Below, in pieces: positions 25,100 to 62,081 of a DNA stretch of 64,000 nucleotides. The position numbers and the translations under genes are program-made. How positions within the stretch are numbered: the first letter of the stretch is position 1; each line of letters begins with the position of its first letter. Under the pieces are notes generated by a model that saw only the letters and a program-made list of their open reading frames with translations, was not told the DNA's origin and ran no database searches. Source of the DNA: Tethya wilhelma (Eukaryota; Porifera; Demospongiae; Tethyida; Tethyidae); the NCBI GenBank assembly GCA_964030475.1, contig CAXIPT010000001.1, positions 23,427,532 to 23,491,531 of the forward strand, written 5' to 3'.

Positions 25100-26190
25100 A
25101 ATACCTGAGGGTGAGGGTCTCAAACATCCTGATGATCAGCTGATTGAATCAGGAATGATCCCTGCAAAGCTTCCGAATGTATCTTCCAAATGGGAGAAAG
25201 GCATATGGATCGTGATGAGTCCACTGTAGCATCCACTCCAATCAATTTTAGGTCTGGTTTCCAGCAGCTGCTGTAGAATGGAGGGATTTGGCAGTTTAAG
25301 GATGAAACAAAAAGGTCTACTGAGAAAGGCCTGAAAGATGCCTCCAGCAGGTTGAGGACGTGACTGCACGCTTGGTCTACTTGAATGTTGTCAATCCCTG
25401 GGAGGTGTTCAGCATTAAATTGTCAGGCTCATCCACTCCCAGAGACTCTTGGAGATACTGGCAGGACAAGGTCAGAAAATGAGTACCTCCCTTCTTGTTC
25501 AGGTATGCTATTGCCGTTCTATTGTCCATGAAGATCAGAAGGTGGCTGTCATTGAGGTTGTCAGCAAATAACTGTACAGCTAGTAAAGCTGCCTGAAGCT
25601 CCAGAATGTTGATTTGAAAATTCTGTTCTTGGTGAATCTACCAGCCTCTAATCTTTTGGTTTGAATTCATGCAAAATGCTCTGCAGCTGCTCAGGAAGCA
25701 TGGTTAGGACTACCTTTGTAAGGGTTGACCATTATGATGATGAAGGTCTGTCAGCCACCGATTCAGATCCACTTGCAAGTCAGGACTATAGAATTTACGG
25801 ACAACTGCCCGGAGCTTTTGATCAATCCTTCTAATAAGGCTCTGTAATAAAGGGGAGCTGGCATGACTGCGGGGCATCATAGTAATTACTTCCCGTTGCA
25901 CCTGATTGGGATAATAGTAATTACTTCCCGTGGCACCTGATTGGGATAATGACTAATGGTGGTGCCACAACTACTAGTTTCAACAGTTTCATGAAGATGA
26001 GAAACACAATGGAAAGGCCAAATGGGAGTGAGCAGAACTGGTATGAGTGGCCTTCCAATGTAAACCTGAGGTACTTCTGCAATTCTTCATGGATGAGGAG
26101 AGTTGGGTTGATGTTAGTGCACGGATGCTCTTTAGCATCTTTGCTAAGTTCTTCTGGTTAAACTTAAGTTTGTCAATCATAGCAGATCTG
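25100..26190 (-). pseudogene. DIRS-like (tyrosine-recombinase) retrotransposon pol remnant
   Basis: On the minus strand, in order: RT segment with LRFTLEGHSYQFCSLPFGLS (26100-26000), a linker with DLNRWLTDLHHHNGQPL (25900-25710), an RNase H segment INILELQAALLAVQLFADN...MDNRTAIAYLNKKGGTH (25620-25460), then VDLFVSSLNCQIPPF... (about 25310-25240), a segment common between RNase H and recombinase in DIRS/Ngaro elements. Multiple stops and frame changes. The recombinase domain itself was not found. Confidence 0.7.
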
Positions 26191-39588: not shown

Positions 39589-39873
39589 TTAGCAACTAGT
39601 GCTACCAAACATAGGTCTTCGAAGATGTTGCTTTTGGTGCTCATCAAACATAGCAACGAAAAAATTACTCCATCCTCCCATTCGATTTCTGATCAGATCA
39701 AACTTCTGAGGTTCTACTCTAGCCTTTTCCATTGTGTCAGTATTCAAACACGTAATGGTCACAAGATTAGTACCGGTTTCTCCCTAAAGGGATAACAATA
39801 AAGTATTCCTTTTTCATCAAAGTACAAGACACATGTAACCACTTAAGCACATGATTGCACACACACACACACA

Positions 39874-39915
<42 letters not shown>

Positions 39916-42900
39916 AACACACAGTAGTTACATGACCCTCACTTAAGGGCATGAAACTATTCCATACCTTTGCAAACTTTTCAATAAACTCAAGCAAAAT
40001 TTCAGGTGGAAAGTCTTCTGGGATATTGATATCAACCTCACATCCATTTTCAAAATATCTATTAACAATGAGGGGTAGCATATTAGTCACACTGTACGTA
40101 TATTAATTATTGCATTACAAGTATTAGTTAATTCACCGTCGTGGGTTTGCCTCTTGCTGCATGACCAATAATCAAACTTCCCCATACCCAGTAATTTACG
40201 TAGAGTACGATCATATACGGTGCATTAACTGGTTTGTAGTAAATGTACAGATCAAACCTTTCTTCGTTGTAATACTAAGAATGTTTGAGCAATTTGAGTA
40301 CAGTTCTGTGTTTTTAAGCAAAGTTTTGGAGTAGATTCTAGAAAATACTTCAGAATATGCTGATTTAACTTTAGAATAAGCTCAAGTTATCTCTACAAAA
40401 AAACAAAAGCAAGAGTGGACATTTAGATTTGTCGCTCCAGTTTTAGAGAAAGAGGCCTAGGCCAACAAAATGCTAGTTGCATGGTAGGTATATAGCATTC
40501 AGTCGTTGGTAAGCAAGTTGTCACCATTGCTTTGAGTGCAGTGCAGTATACCATAACATATCTATCTATGATACTTGCTGTTAATGACATTGAAGAAATA
40601 AATTTAAACTGAACAACATTTGCTGCAACTGTACTCTATTTATTCCTAGCCACGTTCACTACACAGCATAAGATTTAGTTTTTCCTATTGATGTCATAAG
40701 GCCTCATACTACAATAATTATTATACATGTAGTAAAAATTTCAAAAAATAAGCAGTGTAGGAATGGGCTATCAAATGCTCCATCCCTTATGATGGCAAGT
40801 GTTTCACTGTAGGCTAGCGCCTAGTATAGTATATAGAGGCTCAATCTACTATTGTACAACTGCGTGGGCACAAAAACCAATATTCTTAGGCAATACAGGT
40901 GATGTAATGGCTTCGCCCACGCTCACTAATTACTGTTCGACCACTGTTCGACCTCACGTGATTACATGTACCAGGCCCTCCCGATTTTTAGCGTGAAACA
41001 CTAAAAAGAGGGAGTGGCCTGGGTACGAGGCTAAGGCAGTATAGCTATCCATGCATGGCCACTCAAGCTGTATTATCTGTATTTTACATTCAGCAAAGGG
41101 GTAGGAGCATGTTGAAAAGTAGGGGGGCAAGCTTTCAAGGGAGAAAAGACTGCCTTTATAATGTGCCTGGCTCAAACTGGATATGTATAGGCTGAGTTTG
41201 AAAGTGGGGCGGCATTGGCCCCCCCTGCCCCCCTTTTCCTACCCCTCTGCATTCTCATAATTTCTTTGTAACTCACTTGTGTAATTTGTTTTCATTATAA
41301 GGTTTAAGAGTAGATATGATTTCCTTTGGATCTGAATATTTAGGACCAGGGGTCGGTACAGCACGATCCTGTATAGTTAGGAGATGTTATATAATACAAC
41401 TAGCAAGAGCACTTCAATGTCTATAGGGCAGGTAGTTGAAGATAAGGCTTAATTAAGTACACATGTGTAGTAAATGTAGTAAACCACATTTCATAGCAAA
41501 CTAGCAAGTACCACATTCTCTTAAGCTCAAAAACAAATGTAGCCCTTAATTTACAATTTGCTGTGTATACATGCATGCATGCAATTCTACTTGAGTTATT
41601 TGTCCTTGTATGTAAAGACAACTATATACTATAATTTCCACTATATCAGTTTGTGTGTTTATAAGACTTAGTACAATAGATTCACCTGAGCATAAGGCTG
41701 AGCACTCATATCTGATGCAGTGGGCTGATGATTCAGTCGACCATCAGGAGTTGCAGCACATGCTGCTCCAACAGAAACATAACTCTCAAATGTTCCACAG
41801 CCAGGCATTACCTATATCAACACAATCAAATCATTGCCAACGCATAAATTGACTATAAATCATGAGAATCAGTAAAAAAAAACTGGGCAATGATAAACTT
41901 GGGAATTGGATGTCTTGGAAGTACCTGAAATAAAAATGGTTTCCCTTGAGCGTTAAAATGTTTTCTTAGCTCATTGTACTTGTCATTAATGGGACCCTTA
42001 TCGTACAGTACACTGTAAGAAATCCTGTGCATTTCTTTAGCAAGCCACGTCGCAATGTCATTTACCTGAAAGGATAATATTATGATGAGATAATATATTA
42101 ATATTGGAGTATACGTATAATTATAGTATAGTGGTAGCAAATTAAAAGCTAACTTCTGAATTAGGATCTTTAGCAACTTCTGGTGTCCCAAACTTTGGCA
42201 GGGATAATGCATAATCTCAGAGGTCCTTAAATGTTTGTGAAGACATCTGGGTATGAATCACTCCTTCTCCAACCATATCATAGAAGGGTTCAACCATCCT
42301 ACACATCAACAGAATCAACCCTACACTTGTAATTTATGTTTTACTTAAGATACTAAACATACACTGATACAAGGGGTGGTTATACGACCATACCTGCTGT
42401 ACTAACACCTGCAACAGGGATCAAAATTTGATCTGTCCAATTTTTAGGCCTTGACTCTTGATCTCACCACTTTGGAAGGCTTTGATCGCTATGACGTACA
42501 GGTAGAATTTGACCTTTGACCAAACTAAAACATGCTATCTGCTGTAGCTAATGACCTTAGACCGCTGATCGAAACTGAGGTGAGCAGTTGAGCTATCTCG
42601 ACCCTTGATGGGGCTAATTATTTACCTTCGACCCCTTTATTGCATCTTGATCCCGTTTGCTAGTGTTAGTACAGCAAGTATGGTAGTGACCAGCCTTTGT
42701 AAGTGTGATGCAAGCTATTGAGACAGAAAAAAATTTCACTAGCTCATAACAGCCATTACATATGAAGCTAATAGCATTACACCATAATTATACTTAGTCG
42801 GGCTGCTGGTTAGTCAGCCTACTAATGTAGCTTGCTTGCATGGTGGCAAGCTGTCAGCTAGGTAGCATTGAAGTATACATGTTGACTAGCATGGACTATG

Positions 42901-45900
42901 ATCCTGGCATCATTGCTTGTGACAACACCATAAAGTTTACTATCAGTATAAGCTAAATAAGCCTGCTAGAGATACTCTTTCGAAGTTTAGGCTATCAAAA
43001 GAGACTGAGTATACGATCAAGTCAAACTGGACCAAAACTTTGCTAAAGCTTTGGAATGGCTGTCTCAGCTATCTCAAGCAACTCAAAAAGCATAGCTTTC
43101 ATTAGTAAACAGCAAGGTTGGAAGTTGCTTTCACAGTATATTATAGTAAAATAATTATTATATTTTCAATAACTATTAATTTTAATTACCCTTCTCCCCA
43201 GTTGTTCATTAGAGCCATTCGTAGCATTTCGAGTGATGTTACATTGTTTTCATCATACACCATTTTCTTAACATTGTAGAGGGAATTCACTGTGTTGGCA
43301 AATCCAACAAACATGGGAGTGAGAATGTGAAACCTGCATGATATTATATATGCATAATCATCACAATGATAATAATTACATTCTTTCTGTAATACCTATA
43401 CAACACATTTATATAGTTTCACTACTTAGGCTAGATCTAGATTAGTGAGCGAGTCCCACATAAATGTCTGAGACATAACATTTGAGATTCTACTTCCTGC
43501 TGTGGGATGTCTGTTCCAGGATTCCTATAAGTGCAGTGTGCACAGCTAGCTCCACTTATACTACATGACATCATGTGTTGTACAAAAATTTGTTAGATCA
43601 GGAAGCTGGAGCTGGTGCGAGCATGCTAGCTGATGTATGCAGCACAGCACAGATGGCAATAAAAACTAGGCAGAGTAAAGAGAGAGCAGCAGGTAGTATC
43701 AATGAAGAAAATCAACAATTGAAAGTAAGCAAAAGAGAGAGAACACCAAGATTGGCTGCGAAACACAATCACCATCTCACTAGCTAACCCCAGAACATAA
43801 TAATTATTATTAATAATTATAATATTATAGACTTGCTGCAGCATTTGAACTGGTACACATTTATTTATCAATATGATTATAATTATATAACCCACTAAAC
43901 AGCTGACAATTAATTTGTCCTTTCATTTGCAACGAACAAAGGTATTGAGACACCATTTCATTGTTAACTAATTATCACATTCCCATGTTCAACCACTGTT
44001 AACAAGCAAAATACGTAAATGACATCAGCAGTAAAACTTGCAGTGAGAGATGCAGAGATTTTTATTTAGTGTAACCTTTGCAATACAACATAACATGTAC
44101 AGCATCACTGTTAAATCCTTACCACCGAGCTAGAAATTGCATTTGGTACATGGATCGATGAGATTATATTTCTTAATCATTGCAAGTATAAAGACTAAAT
44201 CTCCATTATCATTATTTGCAAACTTGATTGATAGTATAATATTATAGAATAACAACCAGAAATTGCTTTGAATGAAAATTTATAATTAGTGAAGCTATAC
44301 CTGGAGCCACCATTGGTCATATCTTTGCCACTTTCAATACATCCTTCCAGCAGGCAGGAGAGTAAGGGTGATGGACTTATCTTCCATGGGTTTCCATATG
44401 CACCCAATACAAGATTGTACAGATTCTTCACCAAGAGTTCTAAGTGCCTCAAGAATATTCTCTACAAAAATCAATGTATGACCTTATATTAAACCAATTA
44501 TTCTTCTTCTTTATGATCAATCAGTAAACAAAATGCTCAGCTGATAATGCATGATGATTGGTACACCAAGCTTAATTACCTTGAATGCTTCAAAAGTTTT
44601 AATGTTTTGAGGAAGAGGAGTACGATAGGAAGAAACACCACCAGCTAAATTGAGAGTTCCAGCATTTTGATAGTCTGCCCCACAGTTGAGGGTATACACT
44701 ATTGCCTAAATGGACAAACAATAAATACAATTACAAACAGTAGTACATATGTACATGTTAGCAGCCATAGTGATCAGGTCTCTAGTGAGATATAGAAAAG
44801 GTGAATTCATACCCTGTGTTGCGTTGTGTAATAATACTTTTGAATGGCAATGCAGCAAAATGCGTCAATGCAATGCAATGCTGATGCAGACGAATTGCGT
44901 TGCTGCGTTCTTGTGCGCGAATAATTTTTACATGACGCAACGCAACACAATGGGAAGTTCTGTGAACCTAACAAAAATTAATTATAGGATGTATACATCA
45001 ATAGGGTGTAGTGGAGGTAGTATAAGAAGCTACTACATGAATTGTGTGCATTTGGGATTTGGTGAATTTGATTGCAAATTGTAATTTAAATCATCAATAC
45101 TCAGACATACTAAACTTCAATATCAATCACACTTACATAATAATATTATTATTATTATGAAGAACATACATGTAATGGGAATACATATCCAAACTTGAAT
45201 TCACTCCTTCCAGTAAACATTGGCTCATAGCAGCCATCACAAGAGTAATCACAGGCTACCTGCTTCAAATCATCAGGAACTTGAAGACCTGAGAGCTGAA
45301 AGGAACGTTCAAGCACATTGTACAGGCCTGAAACAGTGAATGGATGTCAAGGATAAAACAATGTAAAAGTCATTCATACATTCTCAGTCAATAGTGTTTC
45401 TTACCATCAACAAGTTTTTTATCATTGAACAATATAGGATGAGCTCCTCCACTGAGTATGGCTAAAGTAGCAAGCTTCATGACTTTAAGTGGTGTGTTCT
45501 CACTAAGACGAAGTGACACACAAGGTGCATTTAGAGGAAGACGGCGACTAGCTTTGAGACACATCCTGGTGACTTTGTTGCATAGGTCTTTGCCTTGGGC
45601 ATCACAGCCCCCCAGAGTGATCTAATGGTTTGACCAAACAAAATGAATGTTTGTATCCTTACAATAGGGATGTGTATGTGTACATATATATGTATGCAAA
45701 ATAAATACATTAATATTATTCATTACACAATAATAATTGTAGTAGCAGTGATTTACATTATTAAAATAATCTTAACCTGTTGGATCCATTGGTTCATTGA
45801 GTCACCAGTTGGAAAAGGTCCACCTCTTCCAGTGACACAAGTAGATCCATATGTTGTGTGACCAACAGGAATATTGTACCGATTAAGTACCACATGTTCA

Positions 45901-48900
45901 TCAAACTTGATAAAGAAGGCGTCAATTATGTCTTGAGCCTAAGTTTTACACAAGAAAAAAAAGTTTAACAATGCTTTATAATAATATGCATGTATACAGC
46001 ATCAAACTACCACAACGAGAATATTATTTCTACATGTATTGTTCATTAATTAATACTATAGCACCTTTTCCTTGGTAAGAATGCCATGCTTTTTGTCATG
46101 TTTGTAGTACTTGATCAGAAGCTGATCTAGCCTACCAACTGATACCGGCTGTCCAACCAGATGTAAACAGCAGTGCATGGAGAAAATTAGCTGTACAGCA
46201 TCACTGGGATACATTAAAACATTGTTGCATAAAGCTGGAGCTATTTACCATAAAGCTAATACAATTTACTCACTGAAATGAAAATTTTGTAGGATCACCA
46301 TAGGCAAGTCGCCACATTCGATCAGCAATTTCCCTCAAATTTTTTCGGTCCCTTAAGTGCAATGATAACCACATCTTCCAAAGTTAACTTAAGTGAGTAA
46401 ACTAGCTTAATTAACTTACATTTCTTCAGTTGTCTTCAGCTTCATCTTCTCTGCAGTTTCCATAGCTAGTTTAGAATACTTGGTCAAATAGAGTTGTACA
46501 CCCTATTATTATTAGAATTGTAATAACTATATCAAGCAAGTGAATCATTTTTTGAAATATGCATAAATAACTGTATTACTTCAATGTTTAGCATGTAGTT
46601 TTTACCTCATAAGCATATATTGCACTGCGGTAAAACAACAGTTGGTCTTCTGATAAGTTTTCCTTTATGGATTCCTTTTTAAGTTTATCAAGCATACCTG
46701 CTACACCCTGAAATCGAGACAGTCAATGAACAACACCCATGAGCCAAGGTATGATGATTACCACAAATAACATTCAATTAATCAAATAAAAAAGTATAGT
46801 GGATAAAAAATTAATCATGACACTTTAACAACCAGCAATAATTATTATTATTATAAGCAAAGTTTTGTGTGCCTGTGTGTTATGGTAGTTCCCCGGAAGT
46901 GATGCGACCTCAAACTAATAAAAAGCTGCCTGTTCAAGTAACACAAGTATGGCCAAACTGTTTTTGAGATCGCTGACAAGTCTTACCAGTGGCACGACAA
47001 AGCGGAAGCCGCACCGACAATTTTGCGTGGCCACACACTAAACACGCCCAAAATCAGCGCAAATACATGTAAAAAATTACCACAACTGGCTGCTCTGGAC
47101 TGAAGACACTTTTAGACCTCTACAAAGTTAAAACAGCTTTTATAAGCAACCATGAGTAGTTTGTAGCTTGTACAAGTCAAAGGTAGATGTTTTTGTGATG
47201 TGTTTGATCAATTTTTGTCAGTTTTTACTGCTGCATGGCCACATCTGGGGCATTTTGAAGTGTTTTCTGGGATGCCTCAGACAAAGTTCACAAATCCAGG
47301 ACAGTTGGAGCCTATGTAATACGGGAGCCAATCATTCACAAGTGAAGCGTAAAGATCGAGGTCAGAACACTCACTAATAGGAGTCTGCTTCTCTGTTGCT
47401 GTACACAAAAAAAAACAGCTAGCCAGATAGCGAGTTTCTTTGCCAACTGATTACAAAAATGGCGGAAGTCAGAAGAGGGTTGTCTGTGACGTCACGTAGA
47501 AAGTAAATATTGCTGAGCTGGCCTGGCAAAAAAGTACATAGCATGCAGTGCCTGCATGCACATGCTTTGCTTTCATTGAATTGCTTTATTATTCAGATGT
47601 CTGTGCACAGATCTAGCAGTAAAATTAATATCAGTATACTTCATACATGCATAAGCAAGGAATGTAGCAAGCGAAGCGAGCCACACTCCTTGTAATATAT
47701 TATGCTTATACTGGTGAACTTACATAATCCAAAATGTACTGATGTCCAGGAACAATATGACCCATGTTGCCAGCTTCAGTTATACCCAAGCCCAGTGATA
47801 GTGTTCTTTCAGCTCCCTCTTTAATGTATGGCATAACCTCCTTCCCACTGCCAAGGGAGAGCCGGTCAGTCACACCAACAATAAGTTCCTATTAATAAAC
47901 AAATTAATTACTGAGCAACTTGAAAAGCACTCATGGGTGGATTGTAACTTTACTATACTCTATCTGAGCTGAGCTATCCATTTGGTTGAGCATCAATTAG
48001 CCAGAAAAATGTGCAGCACAATAAGTAAAGTGCACGTGTCGTGTGAGCTTTTATGTGTGCATGCACTATAGGGAAATCTCACATGATACAAAGGTGAGAG
48101 CAAATGTTAACTAAGACTTTGCTTTGCTTTATAATTAAGCAGAGCACTTTATTTCAGTTTGGTTGGATACCTGGGTAGATTTGCATGTGTGATTTTGCAT
48201 TTTTCGTTCAAGTTATTGATGCAAAGTGAGTATCAACTCAACTCAGATAATACATATGAATATTGTACCTTGGGGAAAATTCGGTATGTATCAAAGTTTT
48301 TTGAATGTCCATATTTCTTGCCATCAGGACCAGGAAGGGGCCTATAAAATTATCATAACAAAGATAGAGATATATTTATAATGAGAGTAAAAGATCATAT
48401 TGTATATTATGTGTATCTACTTACTCATTGCTAGTGAACACTTCCCCAAGCATCTTCTTATAGCTGAATCCCTTCCTCACTTGTAAAGGTTCTCCCATTA
48501 TAGCTTTCTCATCTTCTTGAAGAAATGACTCCAAGTGTGGTAAGCGAGGAACATCAAACAACTGATACCTATTTAATAAAATCAATGTTCAATACAGCAT
48601 AATAAAATAATTCAATTTACTGACCATGTGGAATGCCAGCGTGAAAATACTTGACTCATCAGGTACAGGACTCTCTTTGAAGGAGGATCATTGCACGCTA
48701 TTCCACCGAGTAGTTGATCACAGCCATACTGGTTGGTTGTCATTGTGTACAGATACTCAATATGATTGTAAAACAAGAGTGGATTGGCGCTTTTGTAAGT
48801 CATCCAAAATGGAATTTCAGGATAAGCATCTTTATCAGTGAGAGTAAGAAGTGCCTCAAGCTCAGAAGCATTTGGACAGTAGTAAAGACCGCCAAATCTG

Positions 48901-50314
48901 TATTGAAATAATATTATAATTAGATAACCAGGCATGCAGTGTTTAAACATCATATCAATTTATAGAAGCTGAATCAGTGATTTAAAGTATACTATTAATT
49001 CAAAGTAGACCCACATCACTTAGAAAGGGACCCAGAAAAATCATTGGAAATATAATAATTGAAATTATACAGGGTGGGATTCAAACTGTGGCCGGGTCTT
49101 TCAAATTCCAGCTGAATGTTTATAACACTAAGCTACTAGACCTCACAGGCAGAGAATTATTAATAGTAGTATGCGCTACAATTCATAGACACTAGTCAAC
49201 TTCTGAACCAGATCCCGAGGCCTACATGTAATGGCATGACTGCATCATGCAAATAATAATTATATATATGACCAGCATGCACGGTGCATTCGTCAAAACA
49301 CACCTCCCCTGTACATGGGTGAGGAAAAGATCATCAACAAAGGAGGCATTTGGTTTCCCAAAAAGATGTTCCAGAATCTTGAATAATTCTTGAATACTGC
49401 TATCAAATCCAACAAAGAATAGACCATCATGTTTAGGTCCCACCACTCCCTTCATTGGAGTGTACGGAAGAGATTGCCTCAAGATCTCAGTGTTGGAACC
49501 ATCCACAGGGCTGATGATTCGTGCCCTCTTAATGTGAGACCTTTTGTCAAGAACAGCAAGGGTCTCACTGTAAGTGCTGTCACGACCAATCATATGCTCG
49601 GTGATTGGCTGGGCATTGTGCTCAATAGCAGTGCTGTCAAACTGGAAAAACTGTACAAAGGCAAAAGTTCCACCTTCAGGGTTGATTTCTCCTGTCATTG
49701 GTGGAATGAGTACCTCCCTAAATGATTGAAAAGGCTATAGTAAATGTAACGATAGAGATTTAAAGCATAAGATACATTGGATTTTGCATAGACACTTACT
49801 ATGGTCAAACAAAACACATAAATGTTTATGCCTGCATTGCATACTTAATAATCATTGTTACTTATTGTCACTGAATATTATGAGTTTAATTAAGGGGAAG
49901 GGAGTTTTTTTTAAGAATATTATAGCAGATATGCCTTATATTTCTGTGCAATAAACTATAAAGTACATTATAAAAAAATACAGCTACATCTTGTAGCTAC
50001 ACATTGTCAATGAAGATATAGTAAGTAGGATACATATAATATTAAGTACCATGAGGTAATAATCAAGAGTTAGACACTGTGTTGGAGATTTCTACTTGAT
50101 TTAAAAACCCAAAGGCTGTTATATAGAATGTCGAGCACAGGATGGGTGAGGCTTCAAAGCTTAGTGCTAGAAGAGATTGAAAGCTTCATATCTCAGGAAC
50201 TACAAACTTTTGTTGAATTCTTTGTGTAATTCTTTCAGATAATCTTGATTATTTTACCTTGGTATGCCGCTTTAATTTGAAGACTGGAACTGTTGTTCTT
50301 GAGATATAGTTGGA

Positions 50315-50369
<55 letters not shown>

Positions 50370-50414
50370 NACATACAAAAGTCACACATTTGGTACACTA
50401 GGACACAGTTGTGT

Positions 50415-50472
<58 letters not shown>

Positions 50473-52403
50473 TTATTACATAGATAAAACGACTACTGTA
50501 CTAACCCTAGGCGCACATGTGCACCATGGGTTAACTAGTTCAGCTAGATATCCAATATGAGGGTTATTCATATAGTATCTGTGTGGTCTAATAAGATATT
50601 AAGTGGGATAGTGTCCTGCAGTTGCCCTATCACATTTTTACAACCAAGTAGTATCTATAATATAGATAACTTACTAAGGTACTGAGTCTACTCAAAGAGT
50701 TTCTATACTTGCATGCTAGCTTGTGGCCATCCATTTTTTAATAATATTTTCTTGCAAAATTGCTGTATTCTATCTAGTATATTAAAGTTTTATGCATTCA
50801 AAGTTCTAAGAGCACTGTGAGTTTCCAAAGATATTTTGCCATACTGCCATACGACAGTTTAACACTTCGTAATAGATTTATTGATAAGGAGAACTATAGG
50901 CTAAGCTTTTTTGTTTACTATAATAATCACTAAGTTATGATTATAAGATCTGTGGTTTTACTAAATCTAATATGTGCAACTAACTAATGATTTCTGGCAT
51001 CTAACTTGATTTTATTATAATATTTTAATTGATTAGTATAAGTTATACATCTAATGGACCAATCTTACTTAATCAATGTATGAGTTTATACCGTATCATA
51101 GACATTACGTCAATAGCATTTGTGACACCATCCTGGAATTGGCCTCCAAAAAGTTTTCCATCATTCTTTTTGTATGTACTCGTTGACTTCAGCGAAACTG
51201 GTATTTTCTGTTGAGACACATAGTCCTGAACAAGCTGTAAGTAATAGTAATAAGGAAAACTCATCTACAGCAAACTGCAAGCTTGAGGATCTCAAGCATC
51301 ATAAAATTATTATACTTAATGTATTAATACCTACCATTAGCATGCTATTACAGCATTCTTTGGTGTCTGCTTTTAGATATAGCCACATGTTAGAATTTGT
51401 GTACCTCAGTTTGTGATGTTTAATGAGAAAATTCTTGTCAGGATCAACAAGTTCTACTGACAGATTAACAGGATGCGAAACTTCCCTGTTCAACAACTCG
51501 CACCATTTAACCCAAGTATTTGGCTCAAATCCAATATTGAAACCTGCATGCGACTGTTTTTTACCAGTCACTTCATCTCCAGTTTGGCAATCTGAGCACA
51601 AACCTACAATTTAAAATAATTTGGCTCAATATACTTTTTATCAATAACCAAAGTAAAGTAAGAGTCTTCTGTTGGTATTTTATTTCTTTACTAATAGTTA
51701 TTTTTGAGTCACTTCTCAGCATAAAGCACACAAGAAAAGCATTTCACAAACTGTATACAACTATCTTTTACTGAACATACTGTTGAGTTGATGAATAAGC
51801 CCAATCAACTTTTCTTGAATCTCGGTAGTGAGACTAACACCCTCATCCAGCACCATTGTTACTTGGCTTCCAAAGTTAGGAAAATATGGCAATGCCTTTT
51901 GAAATGGAGGATACTCAAATTCTTTCGGTTTCACTGTCAGTGGTACTCGCTCCTCTAACTGATTGAATAACTGAACTGCAAGTGATTGCAGAAAGTTATC
52001 CATAGGATACTTTTTGGATAATTCTTGAATGTCCTTCTTGGCCTTAGGTGGAAGTGATGTAATCTTATACTTAGAGACAAGCAACTGTGCAGCCAGAAAA
52101 TTTTCATTAACAAATGACAATGATTCATTTTCTGGACTTTTGGTTATCCTTTGAAGCACATTTGTAGCAATAGTAGTCGCTTGGCTTAGACTAAGCTCTT
52201 GAGCACATTCTGCACAATCAGATCCTTGTTTGACCAGCTGGCTTACAAGATGACCGAGTTCCTGTTTCCAACCTGGATCGGTAAATGTTTCCTTTCCTGA
52301 CAAAATATTATATTCTTGAGGTGTAGGACCCTGCACGGAGTACACAGTAGCATATGAATCATTATAAGGAGCCTGACTTTTTGTATCCGGCAGCTGCTCA
52401 CTA
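39589..52403 (-). CDS. DyP peroxidase-glycyl radical enzyme fusion
   Basis: Coding exons in transcription order: 52403/52393-51772, 51603-51335, 51234-51092, 49717-49304, 48897-48625, 48568-48425, 48341-48269, 47888-47724, 46707-46606, 46502-46420, 46351-46274, 46203-46065, 45938-45777, 45621-45405, 45327-45170, 44705-44580, 44461-44301, 43333-43190, 42298-42154, 42065-41925, 41811-41686, 41368-41277, 40058-39968, 39783-39589. Every join is GT-AG with matching phase, giving about 1420 codons. The N-terminal 110-150 residues are unassigned, with CAEC and, later, CSDC pairs. Next come the two halves of a DyP-type heme peroxidase, then a glycyl-radical enzyme (PFL-like plus Gly-radical domains) to the stop. 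The ATG was not found: the first exon is open to 52408 without Met, so a short upstream exon is likely. One in-frame TGA lies at 42217-42219. No signal or peroxisomal targeting peptide was seen. Expected in cytosol; substrate unknown. Confidence 0.85.
39858..39912. repeat. AC microsatellite in intron 23
   Basis: About 26 AC repeats with one interrupting T, between exons 39783 and 39968 of the fusion gene. Confidence 0.9.
40733..40770 (+). repeat. End fragment of the GGAATGGGC family
   Basis: AGTAAAAATTTCAAAAAATA followed by AGCAGTGTAGGAATGGGC, the same terminus as at 27.8, 28.8 and 30.4 kb. It lies in intron 22. Confidence 0.6.
40971..41037. mobile_element. Hairpin MITE in intron 22
   Basis: CCAGGCCCTCCCGATTTTTA faces a GGGAGTGGCCTGG block and ends in GAGGCTA. 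It belongs with the family at 24494-24882. Confidence 0.55.
44812..44954. mobile_element. Short TIR element in intron 15
   Basis: CCCTGTGTTGCGTTGTGT at the left is mirrored by ACGCAACGCAACACAATGGG at the right. The interior carries repeated GCAATGC words. Confidence 0.55.
46985..47313 (-). mobile_element. GGCTCCAAC-family MITE in intron 8
   Basis: Minus-sense relative of 13945-14280: GACAAAGCGGAAGCC near the left, CCAGGACAGTTGGAGCC at the right. It explains most of the long intron 46708-47723. Confidence 0.6.
48825..51900 (-). other. DyP-type peroxidase domain of the fusion
   Basis: Spans the end of exon 1 to the start of exon 5. The N half has FNIGFEPNTWVKW and WLYLKAD. The signature GxxDG region reads GGQFQDGVTN (51145-51115), so Asp and the final Gly are kept but the first Gly is Gln. 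The C half has GGTFAFVQFFQF, GRDSTYSE, KRSHIKRARI with the expected heme-ligating His at 49534-49536, and EILRQSLPY with the distal Arg at 49477-49479. It then closes with GLFFVGFD and FLTHVQGRFGGLYYCPN, the usual DyP ending. All heme-pocket residues expected from YfeX-type DyPs are present, so it is probably active. Confidence 0.85.
50120..50530. repeat. Repeat with two AC tracts in intron 3
   Basis: AC tracts at about 50316-50369 and 50414-50470, separated by a short unique stretch with an N at 50370. Flanks (CTCAGGAACTACAAAC, AAAACGACTACTGTACTAACC) match the 22.4-22.6 kb repeat. It sits between exons 49717 and 51092 of the fusion gene. Confidence 0.7.
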
Positions 52404-52890
52404 CTAAGTCACTAGCTATATAAGCAAATGAAAAGTGATACTGAATGCTATTAGGTTAAGTCCATTTTTATTCTTTTGATTGCAAGCTAACAAGACAATT
52501 TGGAAAATAATAATAATGCTCCCAAAATAATGTTAGTTCAGCTTGTTGGTGAACACAGATCAAGCTTTCAAGTTTAGGATATCAATATGCTAGCTGGCTA
52601 GTTGTTTTTTAGCCAAGCAAACGGTCCGAAACTGCTTTCCAATTTTTATCTGTTTACAACTTTCAGGGTTTTGCAATTATTTCATAGTTAAATGGCATGA
52701 CATGTGGTTAGTTTGAAACAATTATATAGAATGTAGATCACTGCCTTGCATGCATTTAGCAGAATGCCATACACTGAAGGACTGAGAAGTGTTTATGTAA
52801 AGATAGGCAGTGCACTTGTGAAAAGCTATATATTACTCCAGGTGGCAAAAACTTACATGGCCAGCTATTTCAGATAAAACAGATATCAAA

Positions 52891-56217: not shown

Positions 56218-59200
56218 ATGTCGACAATTTGTCAGAGTCTATGCTTGATACTAATAATTTTTCTAACTTTCACGACTTCAAATGGACAAGGCAAGTCAAT
56301 TCATTTATAAGTTACACAACTAATAATTACATTGATGCTTTCATAAACAAATAAATTTCGCATAAGGATATCTGGTAAGAAATAAAATTAATGACTTAAT
56401 AACAATATTAATTTCAGAATACTTTTGCATGATTTAGTGCTTAACATAATTATGCTTTTAATTGTCTGTTAGCAGCACAGATACAAACTGTATATACTAA
56501 GCTCAATACACTGAGACAAAATTATTACCAATGGATGTACATCTACATTATGTATGGATTGACTAAGTGACTATACAATGTCATGTATCTATGCATTATG
56601 ATCTCTATTGTATACAGGTCCAGGTTTCTCCTTGAATGGTGTGAGCTACCCCAACCATGGAGTAGTGCTCCTTGATGATGTGGGAGAAGGTTCGGGAAAT
56701 GCTTTGGAGTGCATATCTGATGACACCAACTGTTGTGATTCAAGTTCTCCTTTCCGTGGGGATTTTTACTTTCCTGAGTTTAGTGGTAATACTGTACCTG
56801 AACAGGATCAGATTGGAAGTAGTGGATACTACATAGATAGGACAGCCGACCGCATTCATCTTAACCGCAGAGGGGGAACTACAGTAAATGGTATCTTTCG
56901 TTGTCGAATAAGTACACTAGCTAATCCTAATGGAGAGGACTTGTACATTGGTGTGCTAGATGAGAGTTCAGGTAACTAATTTAGAAATGAAATGACCACA
57001 CATATAATTGTAAATGTATTATAATTTTTTGTCATAGGTACAGTATGGGAGTCATAATTATAGTTACGATTTAATCATTTTGTATTCCACTTAATTAGGC
57101 TTGCCCTCTGTAAACAGTGTGTTGTATAGTCATACTGAAAGACAATTCACCTGTGAATCTGTTGGTCCTGCTACCACTGTCACTTGGAGGAAGAACTGCA
57201 TGGTTTTACCAAGCAATGCAGACTATCTGCAATCGAAGGTAATCACTAGCACTTGGTGGAGAGGCACATATAGAAACACACTCACCCTTGGTAGTGGAGT
57301 CACTGACACAGACGGAGTCTATACCTGTGCTGTGACCAACAATAGAGGATTTCATTCGAAAATAGTTGGAGTTGGAGGTAATACTAAACCTTCAAGTTAA
57401 GTGATAGGGAAAAAAACATTATAGTATTCTCTCCATGTAGTTGATTACACCCCTGCACTTCTTATCACTGTCTCGATCACTCAAAGTGGCGCACCAGTTA
57501 TCGGTCAATCACACACACTTACATGTTATGCTAATGGAGTGACCACATCACCAGTGTCTTTCCAGTGGATTGGACCAGACAGCAGTACCCTTGGCAGTAC
57601 TACAAACACCCTCACTCTCAATCCTCTCAGTGGTAATGATAGAGGAGAGTACTCATGTATGGTCACTGTAGGAAGTGGAGCTAATACAAGAGTAGGCTGT
57701 GGTGTCCGGATGGTCGGTAAGCTTGCGTACATGTGATAAAGTGTCATAGTGAATGCATGCATAGACTAAGTGACTACTATATAGTACAATGTCATGTATG
57801 CTAGCTCCACAAAGTGTGATCGTTACTGGAGGTACTGTGGTGGCTGGTGGCTCTTTCACCCTTACTTGTTCAGTCCTTGGGGCTCCAGACAACAGTATGA
57901 TCTCCTACAGATGGACCAAAGGCAGAACTACACTCTCTTCATGCACAACAAATGAATGCACCATCTCTGGTGCTCAGGCCGAAGATGCTGGGAATGACTA
58001 TCAGTGCAAAGTTACTGTTAACAGTGCAGGAATGGCCACGTATGCAAGTACAGCAACAGGAACACTCAGAGTGATTTGTAAGAGGATTTAGGTTCACTAT
58101 TTTTATAGATAATAATTGAATGGGATCATGCATAATTTTAACAATAATTATTATAATACAGTATTATTGTTACAGTAACTGTAACAATAAAAATTCAATT
58201 TCATATTTTACTCAGTACCTACCCTAGAGATTACAGTGAGAAAGGATTTGATACAACCATATTATGTTGGACTTCATGGCTTCTCTTTGCATTGTGATGT
58301 TGAAAGGATTGGTGCTGTTGTCTCAGGAGTGACTACTGATATTGTATGGAACAGAGGTAGCAATGTAGTAACCAGTGACAGTCGTATTACTGTGGAAGAT
58401 TTGGAAGAGACTAGGTTGGGACGTGAGTGGAGAAGAGCAGTAACTTTTAACCCCTTGAGTTCCGTAGACAGTGGCTCATACACCTGCATTGCAATCTTTA
58501 GACCAACCACAGCCAATGTCTTTGTTACAAATGGAAGGAGTACAGAAATGACACAACTGAATATTGTCTGTGAGTAAATCTAAATAATGATTATTATTTC
58601 CAAAAACAATCTATTTGAAATTCTTTCAATATTCCTTACATATTGTAGCTCCCACTTTGGATGTTCGTGCATTCAAATCCAACTCAACATCGATTCCAAT
58701 GGACATATTATCTCTCACTTGCACTGCCACTAGTCTTGTGGATGGCGTAGCAACAGCTCTCACTAAAACTTTTGAATGGATAGGCTTTAATCAACCGATA
58801 ATCACCTCTAGTAACTCTAGACTTGGTCAAACTACCAGTACTAGTATAATCACCTTTCAAGCAAGCACAGCTGGCATCAACACTTACACTTGCCGAGTGT
58901 CATTGGATGTTAGGCCAGCTACAGATGTTATTAGTGGGCAGGCCAGTGTAATCATGCAAAGTAGGGAGAATACATGTGACTCCATATAGTGAATAATGTA
59001 TATCTTCTGACAACACATGCTATTTGTTTCCCTTTTAGATGTGTGTCCAATGCTATTCAATGAACAGATTGATTTACAGTTTCCGAACATTACAATTACT
59101 TGGCCAGAGACGGTGATTGGAGACAATGTTTCCTACACATGTCCATGCCAATACCTAACGAGTACAAAGGAGAATAGTTTCAACACAGGGTCCCGTATGT

Positions 59201-62081
59201 GTGCAGGAAACTATTCAAGTGGTGCCTTATGGGGTCCTGTGAACATCTTTGAAGACTGTGATCTCACGACCATCACACTGAAGCTTTGTCAAGCACAGAT
59301 GGTAAGAGATGTGGAAAAAGTTAGCCAATGATTTTTAATAACAAATATACATTACATTGTACAATAGACAGCTGCAAGTAATCTAAAGGTTCTTTCAGAA
59401 GTTTTGGCCAATGTTACAAGTAGTACTGAACAAATCCAAGCTGTCGATATTTCAGCAGCTACAACACTTATTGAAGAACTGACTGACGAAGCTACAAATG
59501 CAGAAAATGAACAGGTTGGCTAGCTTTATAGAGGGGGAAATACCATGCATTGAAATCGCAGTAATGTAAATGTTTGCATAATATGTATAACTTTTGGTAT
59601 GTAGATCAGAGAAAATTTCTTGAAGACTATTGACAATATCATTCAAGCTAATGGTGAAGAAGTAGTTCAAAGCCAGGACAACACAAACACTTCAGCAAGG
59701 TGATTACTATGTAGATTTGTATAGAACACATAATCATTCATAATAATTGCACACAGACTTCTCACAACCATTAACAGCTTTGTGGACAAAGTTGAAGTAT
59801 CCAATACAACTAACTCTACTACATTCATTCAACGCTCTTATGCAATTCATATAGCAAGTGTTGATGATACAAACGAATTCAACGGAGAAACCCTAAAGTT
59901 GGAACTAGGATCTATTGATGATATTTTGGGTGGAGAAAGTGAGATAAATCCCAATTCAATAAACGTAGTAGCTGGAACAGATGAAGATATTGAAGGAGAA
60001 GTCACAGCAGCTGTGAGGGTACCAAAAACCATCTTCCAAGAACTAGGTGTTAACAACAGTGAGGCTCAAAGGTTATCCTACTCAGTGTTCACTCAAGGAA
60101 GTCTATTTCAGTCTTCAGATGTAAATCAAAGTAACCTGACTCTTGGCTCAGTTGTGGTATCTGTTAGAGTAAGTGGTATAAGTGGCAGACAATCACTAGC
60201 ATCTCCTATTGAAGTACTCTTCCAACCAAGCCAGGTAGGCATCCAAAATTAATGGCTATAATGTACTTGTTTAAATGTGATATTACAATAATGATTATTA
60301 TTACATTGTATTACTTGCCAGCAAATTGACAATTCTACTGACACACTCTGTGCAATTTGGGATGCCACATACAATGGTAAGATAGGACAGAAATTTCTGC
60401 TGATCACTCTTGAAAGATTTTAGTCTTAATTTTAATTTTTGACAGAGGGACATGGAGCTTGGGCCACTGATACCTGTGTTCTTGTTGATGAGAAAAGCAC
60501 AATAACTCTCGTGGTTGATGAACCATCACCGATCAACAGTTCAAGTTGGGAAAAACCTAATCCAATGCTACCAGCTGATAAAAGTTCACCAGATTCAGAA
60601 ACGAATGTCAAGGTTCACTATGTACAACTGGGGCATTTTGGCTTACTTCTAGTATGTGATAATATTATATGTAACCTAATAATAACATATTTAATATTCT
60701 TTTAAACATAATATGCAGGATTTAACATATGGAGTTGTTGAACCACTTCCAGAAGAATTCTCATTTGCTTTGCAATTGATTTCATACATCGGACTCTGCA
60801 TATCTTTGATTTGTTTGACTGTTTTTCTCCTCACATATCTCACAGCAAAGTATATGATTATGATTAATCTAAATCTCTTAACTATATTGACTAATGCCAC
60901 CTCTAAACTATATTGACTAATGCCACCATGCATGCATGGCTTTTACTAAAATAACCACTCATTGTAATTTCTACAGACAACTTCGTACAAATGGACATGG
61001 ACAGATTCTCATCAACATGTCGATTGCTCTCATGTGTCTCTACATCATGTTTCTAATTGGAGTACATGCAGCACCAGAACCAGTCCTCTGTGCTGTTTCT
61101 GCTGTACTCCTTCAATACTTTATGCTAGTGTACTTTTCCTGGACGGTAGTGGAGGCTGTTTATCTCTACAGGAAACTTGTCAAAGTACTTGCAACACATA
61201 CCCCAAAGTTTGCACTGAAAGCTGGTCTGATTGCCTGGTGTAAGTGGTCATTCAGGATAAAATCGATGAAAAAATTAATTATTACTGACATATACTTTCA
61301 TATAGTGTCACCATGGATTATTGTGGTGGTTTCGGTTGGCCCTGGATACCAGAGCTACTACAGAGATAAATTATCTTCTGGATTGTAAGCAGTATACAGT
61401 GTATATATTAGTAGAGAAAATTTTTAATTTTCTTGTCACGAATTTCCTTCTTTTTTCAGCTGTCGTGTCATTGGTCTCCCCTTCTGGTTTGGAACAATAC
61501 TTCCATTCACAGTTGCTTATGTCTTCAATTGGATAGTGTTTGTATTCATTGTTTCCTCTCTTTGTCACAACACCCAAAGCAAGTTTAACAAGGAAGCAAA
61601 CAAGAAGAAGGTCAAGTCCATGAACTTTGTGAAGCAACAAGTAACAATCGCCTTTGGTCTTGCCACATTGTTTGGTCTTGGATGGGGGTTTGGACTGGCT
61701 GCCAGTGGTACTACTGTTCATGGTCTCACGCTAGCTTTTCAAATCATCTTCAGTATATTTGTGGGATCTCAAGGAGGCCTGTTTTTCATTCTTCACGGGA
61801 TAAAGAAGCAAGAAGCTCGCAACCAATGGAAGCTTTGGTGCTCAGCCATCATCAGTAAACCAATACAACTCTACTCTGGGAGTAATGCTATATCTACAGT
61901 AACTGGAACTAATTCTAACTTTGAAAGGTCAACTCTTACTAAAAGAGGAACACTTTCACACAAGCTCAATAAGGAGAAAGAGGAGGAGTCTGGAAACATA
62001 TCACCTGGCTATGTTCCTTCGGAAGAGAAGTATTTGCAAGAGAATAGAGATACAGAGAAACTTTCATTGGAGTCCATTTAG
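56218..62081 (+). CDS. Adhesion GPCR with six Ig-type domains
   Basis: Seventeen exons: 56218-56290, 56618-56971, 57099-57377, 57441-57716, 57805-58077, 58216-58569, 58649-58960, 59039-59301, 59368-59514, 59605-59699, 59757-60234, 60322-60376, 60446-60651, 60719-60849, 60977-61239, 61306-61384, 61460-62081. They sum to 4260 nt, an exact 1419-residue frame. Order: signal peptide (ATG 56218), Cys-Cys-type Ig-like module, five Ig domains, hormone-receptor-like Cys domain (TWPETVIGDNVSYTCPC...FEDC), GAIN domain (59368-60376), degenerate GPS, then seven helices. TM2-3 has QILINMSIAL and FSWTVVEAVYLY, TM6 GLGWGFGL, TM7 SQGGLFFILHGIKK. The tail is Lys/Glu-rich. Introns of the Ig exons are phase 1; the first intron has a GC donor. 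Predicted plasma-membrane adhesion and signalling receptor. Confidence 0.93.
60322..60720 (+). other. Degenerate GPS of the receptor
   Basis: CAIWDATYN...GAWATDTC keeps the first two GPS cysteines. The distal segment reads VKVHYVQLGHFGLLL in place of the usual xCxCxHL-T-FAxLM, so both distal cysteines, the His at -2 and the Ser/Thr at +1 are gone. Confidence 0.85.

What the first reader, a model, noticed from the sequence alone, without database searches (positions are those of the whole stretch)
39589..52403. DyP peroxidase fused to a glycyl-radical enzyme in an animal genome
One spliced frame links a heme peroxidase (GGQFQDG, SHIKRARI, ILRQSLPY) to a complete glycyl-radical enzyme (GCYEP loop and RMGGW radical site). 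All 23 intron joins keep phase, and the DyP C-terminus runs through exon 5 into exon 6 without a break. Glycyl-radical enzymes are oxygen-inactivated and almost unknown in animals; pairing with a peroxide-consuming domain could protect or regenerate the radical, or feed a coupled reaction (inference). Twenty-three introns argue against bacterial contamination. I know of no described animal system of this kind.
Basis: partly seen in the sequence, partly recalled or inferred. Interest (0 to 1): 0.93.

Follow-up and report, generated by a model that had tools for sequence, protein, structure and literature searches.

The report
Peroxidase-primed glycyl radical enzyme in animals
One animal gene joins a heme peroxidase to a glycyl-radical-type enzyme, and in 43 examined bacterial genomes that carry only this kind of radical enzyme the usual activating enzyme was not found, so the peroxidase half likely makes the radical, which would be a new way to run this chemistry in air.

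Summary
The fusion is real. Twenty-four exons (52408-39589, minus strand) join with 23 GT-AG, in-phase introns; one exon carries both the DyP end and the start of the glycyl-radical enzyme (GRE). Both domains score in Pfam.

The architecture is not new: DyP-PFL fusions were reported in fungi in 2016, function "elusive". New here: fused relatives in Hydra, Clytia and Acropora; a sister GRE without DyP that in 9 of 11 loci is followed by a separate, distantly related DyP gene (two loci run off the contig); and no dedicated GRE activase over a curated cut-off in 43 of 43 genomes whose only PFL-like enzyme is DyP-linked, against 7 of 7 with an ordinary GRE.

Best explanation: the DyP heme, oxidised by H2O2, makes the glycyl or thiyl radical in place of a radical-SAM activase (inferred; about 0.5). 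Substrate unknown; loop and fold point to eliminase chemistry. Against: a reported activase in one fungus, NrdG2 in some genomes, and a subfamily that lost the distal DyP residues.

The parts
51781..52408 (-). exon 1 (codons 1-210): ~150-residue N-terminal extension of unknown kind, then the start of the DyP domain; first Met at codon 136; true 5' end not found
   Evidence: no Pfam match at E<=0.01 to the exon's frame alone
51335..51603 (-). exon 2, DyP
51092..51234 (-). exon 3, DyP; GGQFQDG, distal Asp334 codon 51132-51130
49304..49717 (-). exon 4, DyP; proximal heme-ligand His408 (49536-49534), distal Arg427 (49479-49477); roles of these residues recalled from known DyPs
48625..48897 (-). 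exon 5 (codons 485-576): DyP C-terminus, linker and start of the GRE fold in one exon
48425..48568 (-). exon 6, GRE N-terminal region
48269..48341 (-). exon 7, GRE
47724..47888 (-). exon 8, GRE; conserved His692 (47759-47757), aligned with His166 of diol dehydratase 5i2a
46606..46707 (-). exon 9, GRE
46420..46502 (-). exon 10, GRE
46274..46351 (-). exon 11, GRE
46065..46203 (-). exon 12, GRE
45777..45938 (-). exon 13, GRE
45405..45621 (-). exon 14, GRE
45170..45327 (-). exon 15, GRE thiyl loop DGCYEPM; catalytic Cys996 (45232-45230), Glu998
44580..44705 (-). exon 16, GRE
44301..44461 (-). exon 17, GRE
43190..43333 (-). exon 18, GRE
42154..42298 (-). exon 19, GRE; contains the in-frame TGA
42217..42219 (-). 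in-frame TGA (codon 1187), where 103 of 105 aligned relatives have Arg and 2 have Lys
41925..42065 (-). exon 20, GRE
41686..41811 (-). exon 21, GRE
41277..41368 (-). exon 22, GRE
39968..40058 (-). exon 23, GRE
39589..39783 (-). exon 24, glycyl-radical loop RNRMGGWSNFF (Gly1395, 39675-39673) and stop TAA 39591-39589

Best explanation
The gene encodes a B-type DyP heme peroxidase fused to a glycyl-radical-type enzyme, and the peroxidase half likely makes the glycyl (or thiyl) radical from hydrogen peroxide in place of the usual radical-SAM activase. Shown by sequence: the fusion; the heme-ligand His, distal Asp and Arg; the catalytic Cys and the radical Gly; the same fusion in bacteria, fungi and other animals; a separate operon-like pairing of a sister GRE with a different DyP; and no dedicated GRE activase over a curated cut-off in the 43 examined genomes that have only this kind of GRE. 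Inferred: H2O2 turns the DyP heme into a ferryl oxidant; a hole or hydrogen-atom relay through the protein takes the hydrogen from Gly1395 (directly or by way of Cys996); the Cys996 thiyl radical then starts an eliminase-type (dehydratase-like) reaction on a substrate that is still unknown. This would be to ordinary glycyl radical enzymes what oxygen-dependent class I ribonucleotide reductase is to class III (recalled analogy). In this assembly the only copy found carries one in-frame TGA, so whether this animal makes the full-length enzyme is open.
For: Fusion: in-phase exons and one exon across the junction. 43 of the 44 hits of the full-length search carry both domains in one protein. Fused animal relatives: Acropora, Clytia, Hydra, and a partial Mytilus model. 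Active sites, among 107 aligned relatives (4 of them ordinary GREs), counting those with a residue at the column: heme-ligand His 93 of 94, catalytic Cys 105 of 106, radical Gly 101 of 101. Second pairing: in 9 of 11 stand-alone GRE loci the next gene is of one family. Pfam was run on two of the nine and gives Dyp_perox_N and _C; all nine share 51-72% identity with their best partner in the group and show F-x-D-G. They have only weak matches to the fused DyP (24-34% over 88-251 residues), and the one searched against solved structures (L050) resembles EfeB/deferrochelatase best, whereas the fused one resembles the B type. The other two loci run off the contig. Activase: of 50 genomes searched (50 of 67 loci), the 7 with an ordinary GRE all have an activase over a curated cut-off, near that GRE; the 43 with only the DyP-linked GRE have none (Fisher p 1e-8). 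Sensitivity control: 27 of 29 further genomes with an ordinary GRE have one. All 43 match the heme-copper oxidase family PF00115; 47 of 48 DyP-linked genomes do. In this animal's genome the only PFL-like matches are exons of this gene, and no activase was found at exon-level sensitivity. A model of a bacterial relative (P0010) has pTM 0.92, with a full DyP fold and a full GRE fold. The fungal fusion gene is reported as induced 18.5-fold by peroxyacetic acid and 3-fold by H2O2 (PMC5041501, passages).
Against: No biochemistry, EPR or transcript. The TGA interrupts this copy. PMC5041501 reports a putative PFL activase in Chaetomium cochliodes, which also has the fusion. In a subfamily the distal Asp is His (13 of 89) and the distal Arg is lost (overall Arg 79 of 96), though the His ligand stays. 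The genomes' completeness is not told. One of the two ordinary-GRE controls also has PF00115, so oxygen respiration does not separate the two kinds. The distance between the heme and Gly1395 could not be measured, because no coordinates are returned.
Confidence: 0.5

Rival explanations
1. Shield: the DyP only removes peroxide near an oxygen-labile GRE, and an as yet unrecognised radical-SAM protein (such as NrdG2) makes the radical.
For: NrdG2 over its cut-off in 4 of the 8 genomes whose sub-threshold hits were named; putative PFL activase in Chaetomium (PMC5041501); general knowledge that O2 destroys glycyl radicals.
Against: 20 of 43 DyP-only genomes show no PFLA-like match at E 1e-8. Ordinary GREs have their activase nearby (3 of 3 loci; all 7 genomes) and this family does not. 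A DyP removes H2O2, not O2 (general knowledge).
Confidence: 0.25
2. Relay: the DyP half oxidises or makes the substrate that the GRE half then uses (two-step enzyme), with radical initiation unsolved.
For: Fusion and operon-like pairing fit any coupled steps. Phosphatase-like, phosphoesterase or PLD-like genes recur nearby (some labels by eye), hinting at a pathway.
Against: Does not explain why the activase is missing; two distant DyP types pair with the same GRE clade, which suggests a shared redox role more than a shared substrate.
Confidence: 0.15
3. About this copy only (compatible with the others): it is a decaying or variant allele; the in-frame TGA ends the protein before the radical glycine, leaving a DyP plus a dead GRE stub.
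For: TGA at 42219-42217 in the only copy found, at a position that is Arg in 103 of 105 relatives.
Against: One stop in 1422 codons, 23 GT-AG joins and every active-site residue kept; an assembly error or polymorphism remains possible.
Confidence: 0.4
4. Two neighbouring genes wrongly joined (separate DyP and GRE transcripts).
For: No transcript seen.
Against: Exon 5 encodes both the DyP end and the GRE start; intronless bacterial ORFs have the same order and similar length.
Confidence: 0.02

Closest known systems
DyP(B)-PFL fusion of Chaetomium and relatives (Ccochdyprx; PMC5041501, 2016; passages read)
   Same: Same domain order. Fungal fused proteins (for example Chaetomidium P0005) match this gene at 36% over about 88% of it. 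The paper calls the significance elusive and notes the fusion in other distantly related prokaryotic and eukaryotic genomes.
   Different: Fungal proteins sit beside betaproteobacterial ones in the tree, apart from the animal members. This gene has 23 introns and an extra ~150-residue N-terminus. The paper reports a putative activase; none was found here.
Eliminase-type glycyl radical enzymes (B12-independent glycerol/diol dehydratases, CutC, HypD)
   Different: About 20-25% identity in the structural alignments; no NCBIfam subfamily model reaches its cut-off; activase not found in DyP-only genomes.
B-type DyP peroxidases (YfeX, DtpB)
   Different: Fused to a GRE; some family members lose the distal residues.
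Class I versus class III ribonucleotide reductase (recalled analogy)
   Same: An oxygen-using radical generator in place of a radical-SAM one.
   Different: No sequence relation claimed; DyP heme instead of a di-metal site.

Membership tests
Glycyl radical enzyme superfamily (PFL-like fold) | PF02901 match over cut-off | tested here: met
   282.7 bits against a cut-off of 24.3
Glycyl radical enzyme superfamily (PFL-like fold) | catalytic Cys on the finger loop | tested here: met
   Cys996; 105 of 106 relatives
Glycyl radical enzyme superfamily (PFL-like fold) | radical Gly in the C-terminal loop | tested here: met
   Gly1395 in RMGGW; 101 of 101 relatives. PF01228 itself did not score at E<=1, and the codon lies behind the in-frame TGA
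Glycyl radical enzyme superfamily (PFL-like fold) | glycyl radical formed | not testable with these tools
   needs EPR
Canonical GRE plus radical-SAM activase system | dedicated activase in the genome | tested here: not met
   none over cut-off in 43 of 43 DyP-only genomes; own genome none, at exon-level sensitivity only
Formate C-acetyltransferase (PFL proper) | TIGR01255 over cut-off | tested here: not met
   19.6 bits against 994.2
CutC, HypD, sulfopropanediol dehydratase, HPAD, indoleacetate decarboxylase | equivalog model over cut-off | tested here: not met
   all far below cut-off, best 174.6 against 1000
DyP-type peroxidase | PF20628 match | tested here: met
   60.6 bits against 20; TIGR01413 89.3 bits is under its cut-off of 100.5
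DyP-type peroxidase | proximal His, GxxDG-type Asp, distal Arg | tested here: met
   His408, Asp334, Arg427; roles recalled
DyP-type peroxidase | heme binding and peroxidase activity | not testable with these tools
   none
DyP-PFL fusion family (fungi, bacteria) | both domains in one protein, DyP first, aligned end to end | tested here: met
   38% over 1278 columns to P0045, 36% over 1265 to fungal P0005

The most novel reading that the evidence does not exclude
An aerobic branch of the glycyl radical enzymes, spread through bacteria, fungi and animals, does without the radical-SAM activase: a DyP heme peroxidase, fused or encoded next door and recruited at least twice, writes the glycyl radical with hydrogen peroxide, so that animals and air-breathing microbes run thiyl-radical chemistry in the presence of oxygen.
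Probability: 0.45. Interest if true: 0.96.

Novelty: new variant of a known kind. Interest (0 to 1): 0.8.

Why it matters
Glycyl radical enzymes are thought to need a radical-SAM activase and absence of oxygen (general knowledge). Here a whole branch sits in genomes with heme-copper oxidase-family genes, shows no dedicated activase where it is the only GRE (43 of 43 examined), and in the loci seen with enough flanking sequence is fused to or followed by a heme peroxidase. If the peroxidase makes the radical, it is a new class of radical enzyme and explains a fusion whose meaning was called elusive in 2016. It also places this chemistry in animals. The claim is testable with one purified protein and EPR.

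Tried and rejected
Two-gene artefact: rejected by the exon that spans the junction and by the intronless bacterial orthologues. Bacterial contamination: rejected by 23 introns and by flanking Ig and secretin-type 7TM gene pieces. Splicing round the TGA: judged by eye only (no phase-compatible donor/acceptor pair seen in exon 19); residues on both sides match the conserved family sequence. A second genomic copy without the TGA: none found. Selenocysteine reading: not pursued, because the site is Arg in relatives. Hidden activase: TIGR02494's only match in the own genome (E 0.027) is a ferredoxin exon that reads like the C-terminus of dihydropyrimidine dehydrogenase (name by eye). The 7 Radical_SAM exon matches were identified by eye as MOCS1, ELP3, CDKAL1, CDK5RAP1, LIAS (two) and a B12-type radical SAM protein. 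TIGR02493 was not run on the own genome. Measuring the heme-glycine distance: no coordinates returned. Placing the gene precisely in the tree: long branch; joining it to the other animal-containing clade is not rejected (AU p 0.607). Paper searches: 10, judged by their listings; only PMC5041501 was opened (passages). No listing showed a paper on animal members or on peroxidase activation of a GRE; subscription journals are mostly not held.

Full report
What is in the window. On the minus strand, 24 exons between 52408 and 39589 join at 23 GT-AG introns without loss of phase and give 4269 nt. Pfam finds Dyp_perox_C (2e-16) and PFL-like (9.4e-84). NCBIfam finds the DyP superfamily model just below its cut-off and PFL2-type models far below theirs. 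Exon 5 codes residues 485-576; by alignment to the modelled relative P0010 the DyP fold ends near residue 500 and the GRE fold starts near 542, so one exon spans the junction. The window also holds Ig and secretin-type 7TM gene pieces, and the assembly has 124.6 Mb in 204 contigs, so I take this for an animal gene. The species was not identified.

Codon 1187 (42219-42217) is TGA. It lies before the radical glycine (codon 1395). In an alignment of 107 relatives that position is Arg in 103, Lys in 2 and a gap in 2. The exon was found once in the genome. The rest of the frame, all splice joins and all catalytic residues are intact, so this is a recent stop, an allele or an assembly error; the data do not say which. 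The 5' end is also open: exon 1 has no ATG before codon 136, and about 150 residues precede the point where relatives begin.

What it is. The full-length search gave 44 hits, 43 of them with both domains in one protein. The GRE-half search gave 124 (120 listed), including Acropora cervicornis, Clytia hemisphaerica, Hydra vulgaris and Mytilus coruscus with both domains. The Acropora, Clytia and Hydra sequences show the Asp-Gly of the GxxDG site, the His ligand, GCYEP and an RVRTGGW radical loop; the Mytilus model is partial and its radical loop is disrupted (read by eye). A scan of GTDB genomes with two peptide patterns gave 67 loci: 3 ordinary GREs (L065-L067), 11 stand-alone relatives of the GRE half, and 53 fused or fragments of fused genes. 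Three of the fused loci are interrupted or split (L004, L044, L062). The family is therefore established. PMC5041501 (passages read) had described the DyP-PFL fusion in Chaetomium, noted it in other genomes, and called its significance elusive.

Second pairing. Clustering of neighbouring ORFs showed that in 9 of 11 stand-alone loci the next gene on the same strand is one family. Pfam on two of the nine gives Dyp_perox_N and Dyp_perox_C; all nine share 51-72% identity with their best partner in the group and show an F-x-D-G motif. The two other loci run off the contig. Their best matches to the fused DyP domain are weak (E from 2e-8 to 4e-3, 88-251 residues). L050's best solved relatives are EfeB/deferrochelatases (the only one of the nine searched so), whereas the fused domain is B type. 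So the same GRE clade is tied to a DyP in two separate ways.

No activase. Ordinary GREs have the activase next door (3 of 3 loci). Among the 64 other loci, with flanks of up to 8 kb and often less, the same motif scan gave five hits, of which one reads as PflA-like (L043); that one lies beside a separate ordinary PFL on the contig. Whole genomes: I gave 50 of the 67 loci (40 fused, 8 stand-alone, 2 ordinary). TIGR02494 or TIGR02493 is over its cut-off in 7 of 50: G003, G006, G018, G024, G033, G049, G050. The same 7, and no others, carry an ordinary PFL-like gene, told by a PF02901 match that runs to the model's end. The remaining 43 have only DyP-linked GREs (one, G001, has two) and none has an activase over cut-off; Fisher p 1e-8, ignoring relatedness. 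Sensitivity: of 300 genomes of the order of G024, 31 carry a PFL-like gene. Setting G024 aside, 29 are ordinary by match range and 27 of these have an activase (misses: G080, a truncated gene; G195, a match of 165-647 of uncertain kind). The one DyP-like by size and range, G255, has none; its DyP half was not checked. With these added the counts are 34 of 36 against 0 of 44, p 1.4e-20.

Limits of that test. I named ten sub-threshold radical-SAM proteins from 8 of the 43 genomes: 4 NrdG2 over cut-off, 3 AmmeMemoSam, 3 NrdG-like below cut-off; the remaining sub-threshold hits were not named. NrdG2 could in principle serve as activase, but 20 of the 43 have no PFLA-like match at all at E 1e-8. 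Completeness of these genomes is not told. In this animal the search works exon by exon; it found several standard radical-SAM genes but nothing activase-like, and TIGR02493 was not run there. The Chaetomium paper reports a putative PFL activase.

Aerobic setting. The heme-copper oxidase family PF00115 is present in 47 of 48 DyP-linked genomes, including all 43 without an activase; the exception, G033, has two ordinary GREs. One of the two ordinary-GRE controls also has it, so this is not a contrast, only a description.

Evolution. In the 49-row tree the 6 fungal rows form one clade beside betaproteobacterial ones (compare the 180-row tree), as PMC5041501 inferred for its own set. Acropora, Clytia, Hydra and Mytilus fall in another clade with unnamed sequences. 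This gene has a long branch next to an unnamed sequence, P0116; joining it with the other animal-containing clade is not rejected (p 0.607).

Mechanism. The activase was not found where this GRE is alone, a DyP is fused or adjacent, the heme ligand and both radical residues are kept, and the hosts carry oxygen-respiration genes. The simplest reading is that the DyP replaces the activase by oxidising the protein with H2O2. That step is inferred. The substrate is open; phosphatase-like genes (C04 7 loci, C05 6, C06 6) or a phosphoesterase (C02 7) lie in the fetched flanks of 23 of 64 loci, and a PLD-like gene (C00) in 10 (the labels of C04 and C05 are by eye), a lead only.

Noticed in passing
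own genome C5:6102017-6102605 (L082, L083): A second DyP gene with GFVDG, AHVARM and MVRHSQPYG motifs, split by an intron; no GRE is seen in the stretch read.
   Followed up: partly
own genome C5:3807137-3807649 (L073): A 492-residue uninterrupted frame with a radical-SAM Cys motif that looks like a B12-binding radical SAM protein (by eye); odd for an intron-rich genome, possibly transferred or contaminant.
   Followed up: partly
relatives P0027, P0028, P0030, P0033, L021, L022, L024, L045: Subfamily with MLHGL instead of GxxDG: distal DyP Asp and Arg are lost but the heme-ligand His and the GRE residues are kept.
   Followed up: partly
L005, L008, L012-L014, L016-L019, L021-L023, L026, L035, L044, L045, L055, L058, L059, L063 and others: Genes reading as HAD-type, histidine-phosphatase-like (by eye), DUF2608 or phosphoesterase (PF04185), and PLD-like (PF13091), recur near both fused and stand-alone DyP-GREs; possibly a shared pathway on a phosphorylated compound or lipid.
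   Followed up: partly
L004, L044, L062: The DyP-GRE gene is interrupted by stops or split in these bacterial drafts.
   Followed up: no
G285 C9:92302-92667: A fragment of a PFL-like frame with an internal TGA beside a separate intact ordinary GRE elsewhere in the genome; possibly a remnant of a DyP-GRE.
   Followed up: no
window 60921-62078, 57425-57733 and 2148-2567: Pieces of secretin-type 7TM receptors and Ig-like domains on both sides of the gene.
   Followed up: no
window 25377-25637 (-): Short frame that reads like an RNase H piece of a retroelement (by eye; no Pfam match).
   Followed up: no
P0118 (Mytilus coruscus model): Gene model with part of DyP, a GRE whose radical loop is disrupted, and a C-type lectin tail; probably a mis-joined model.
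   Followed up: no
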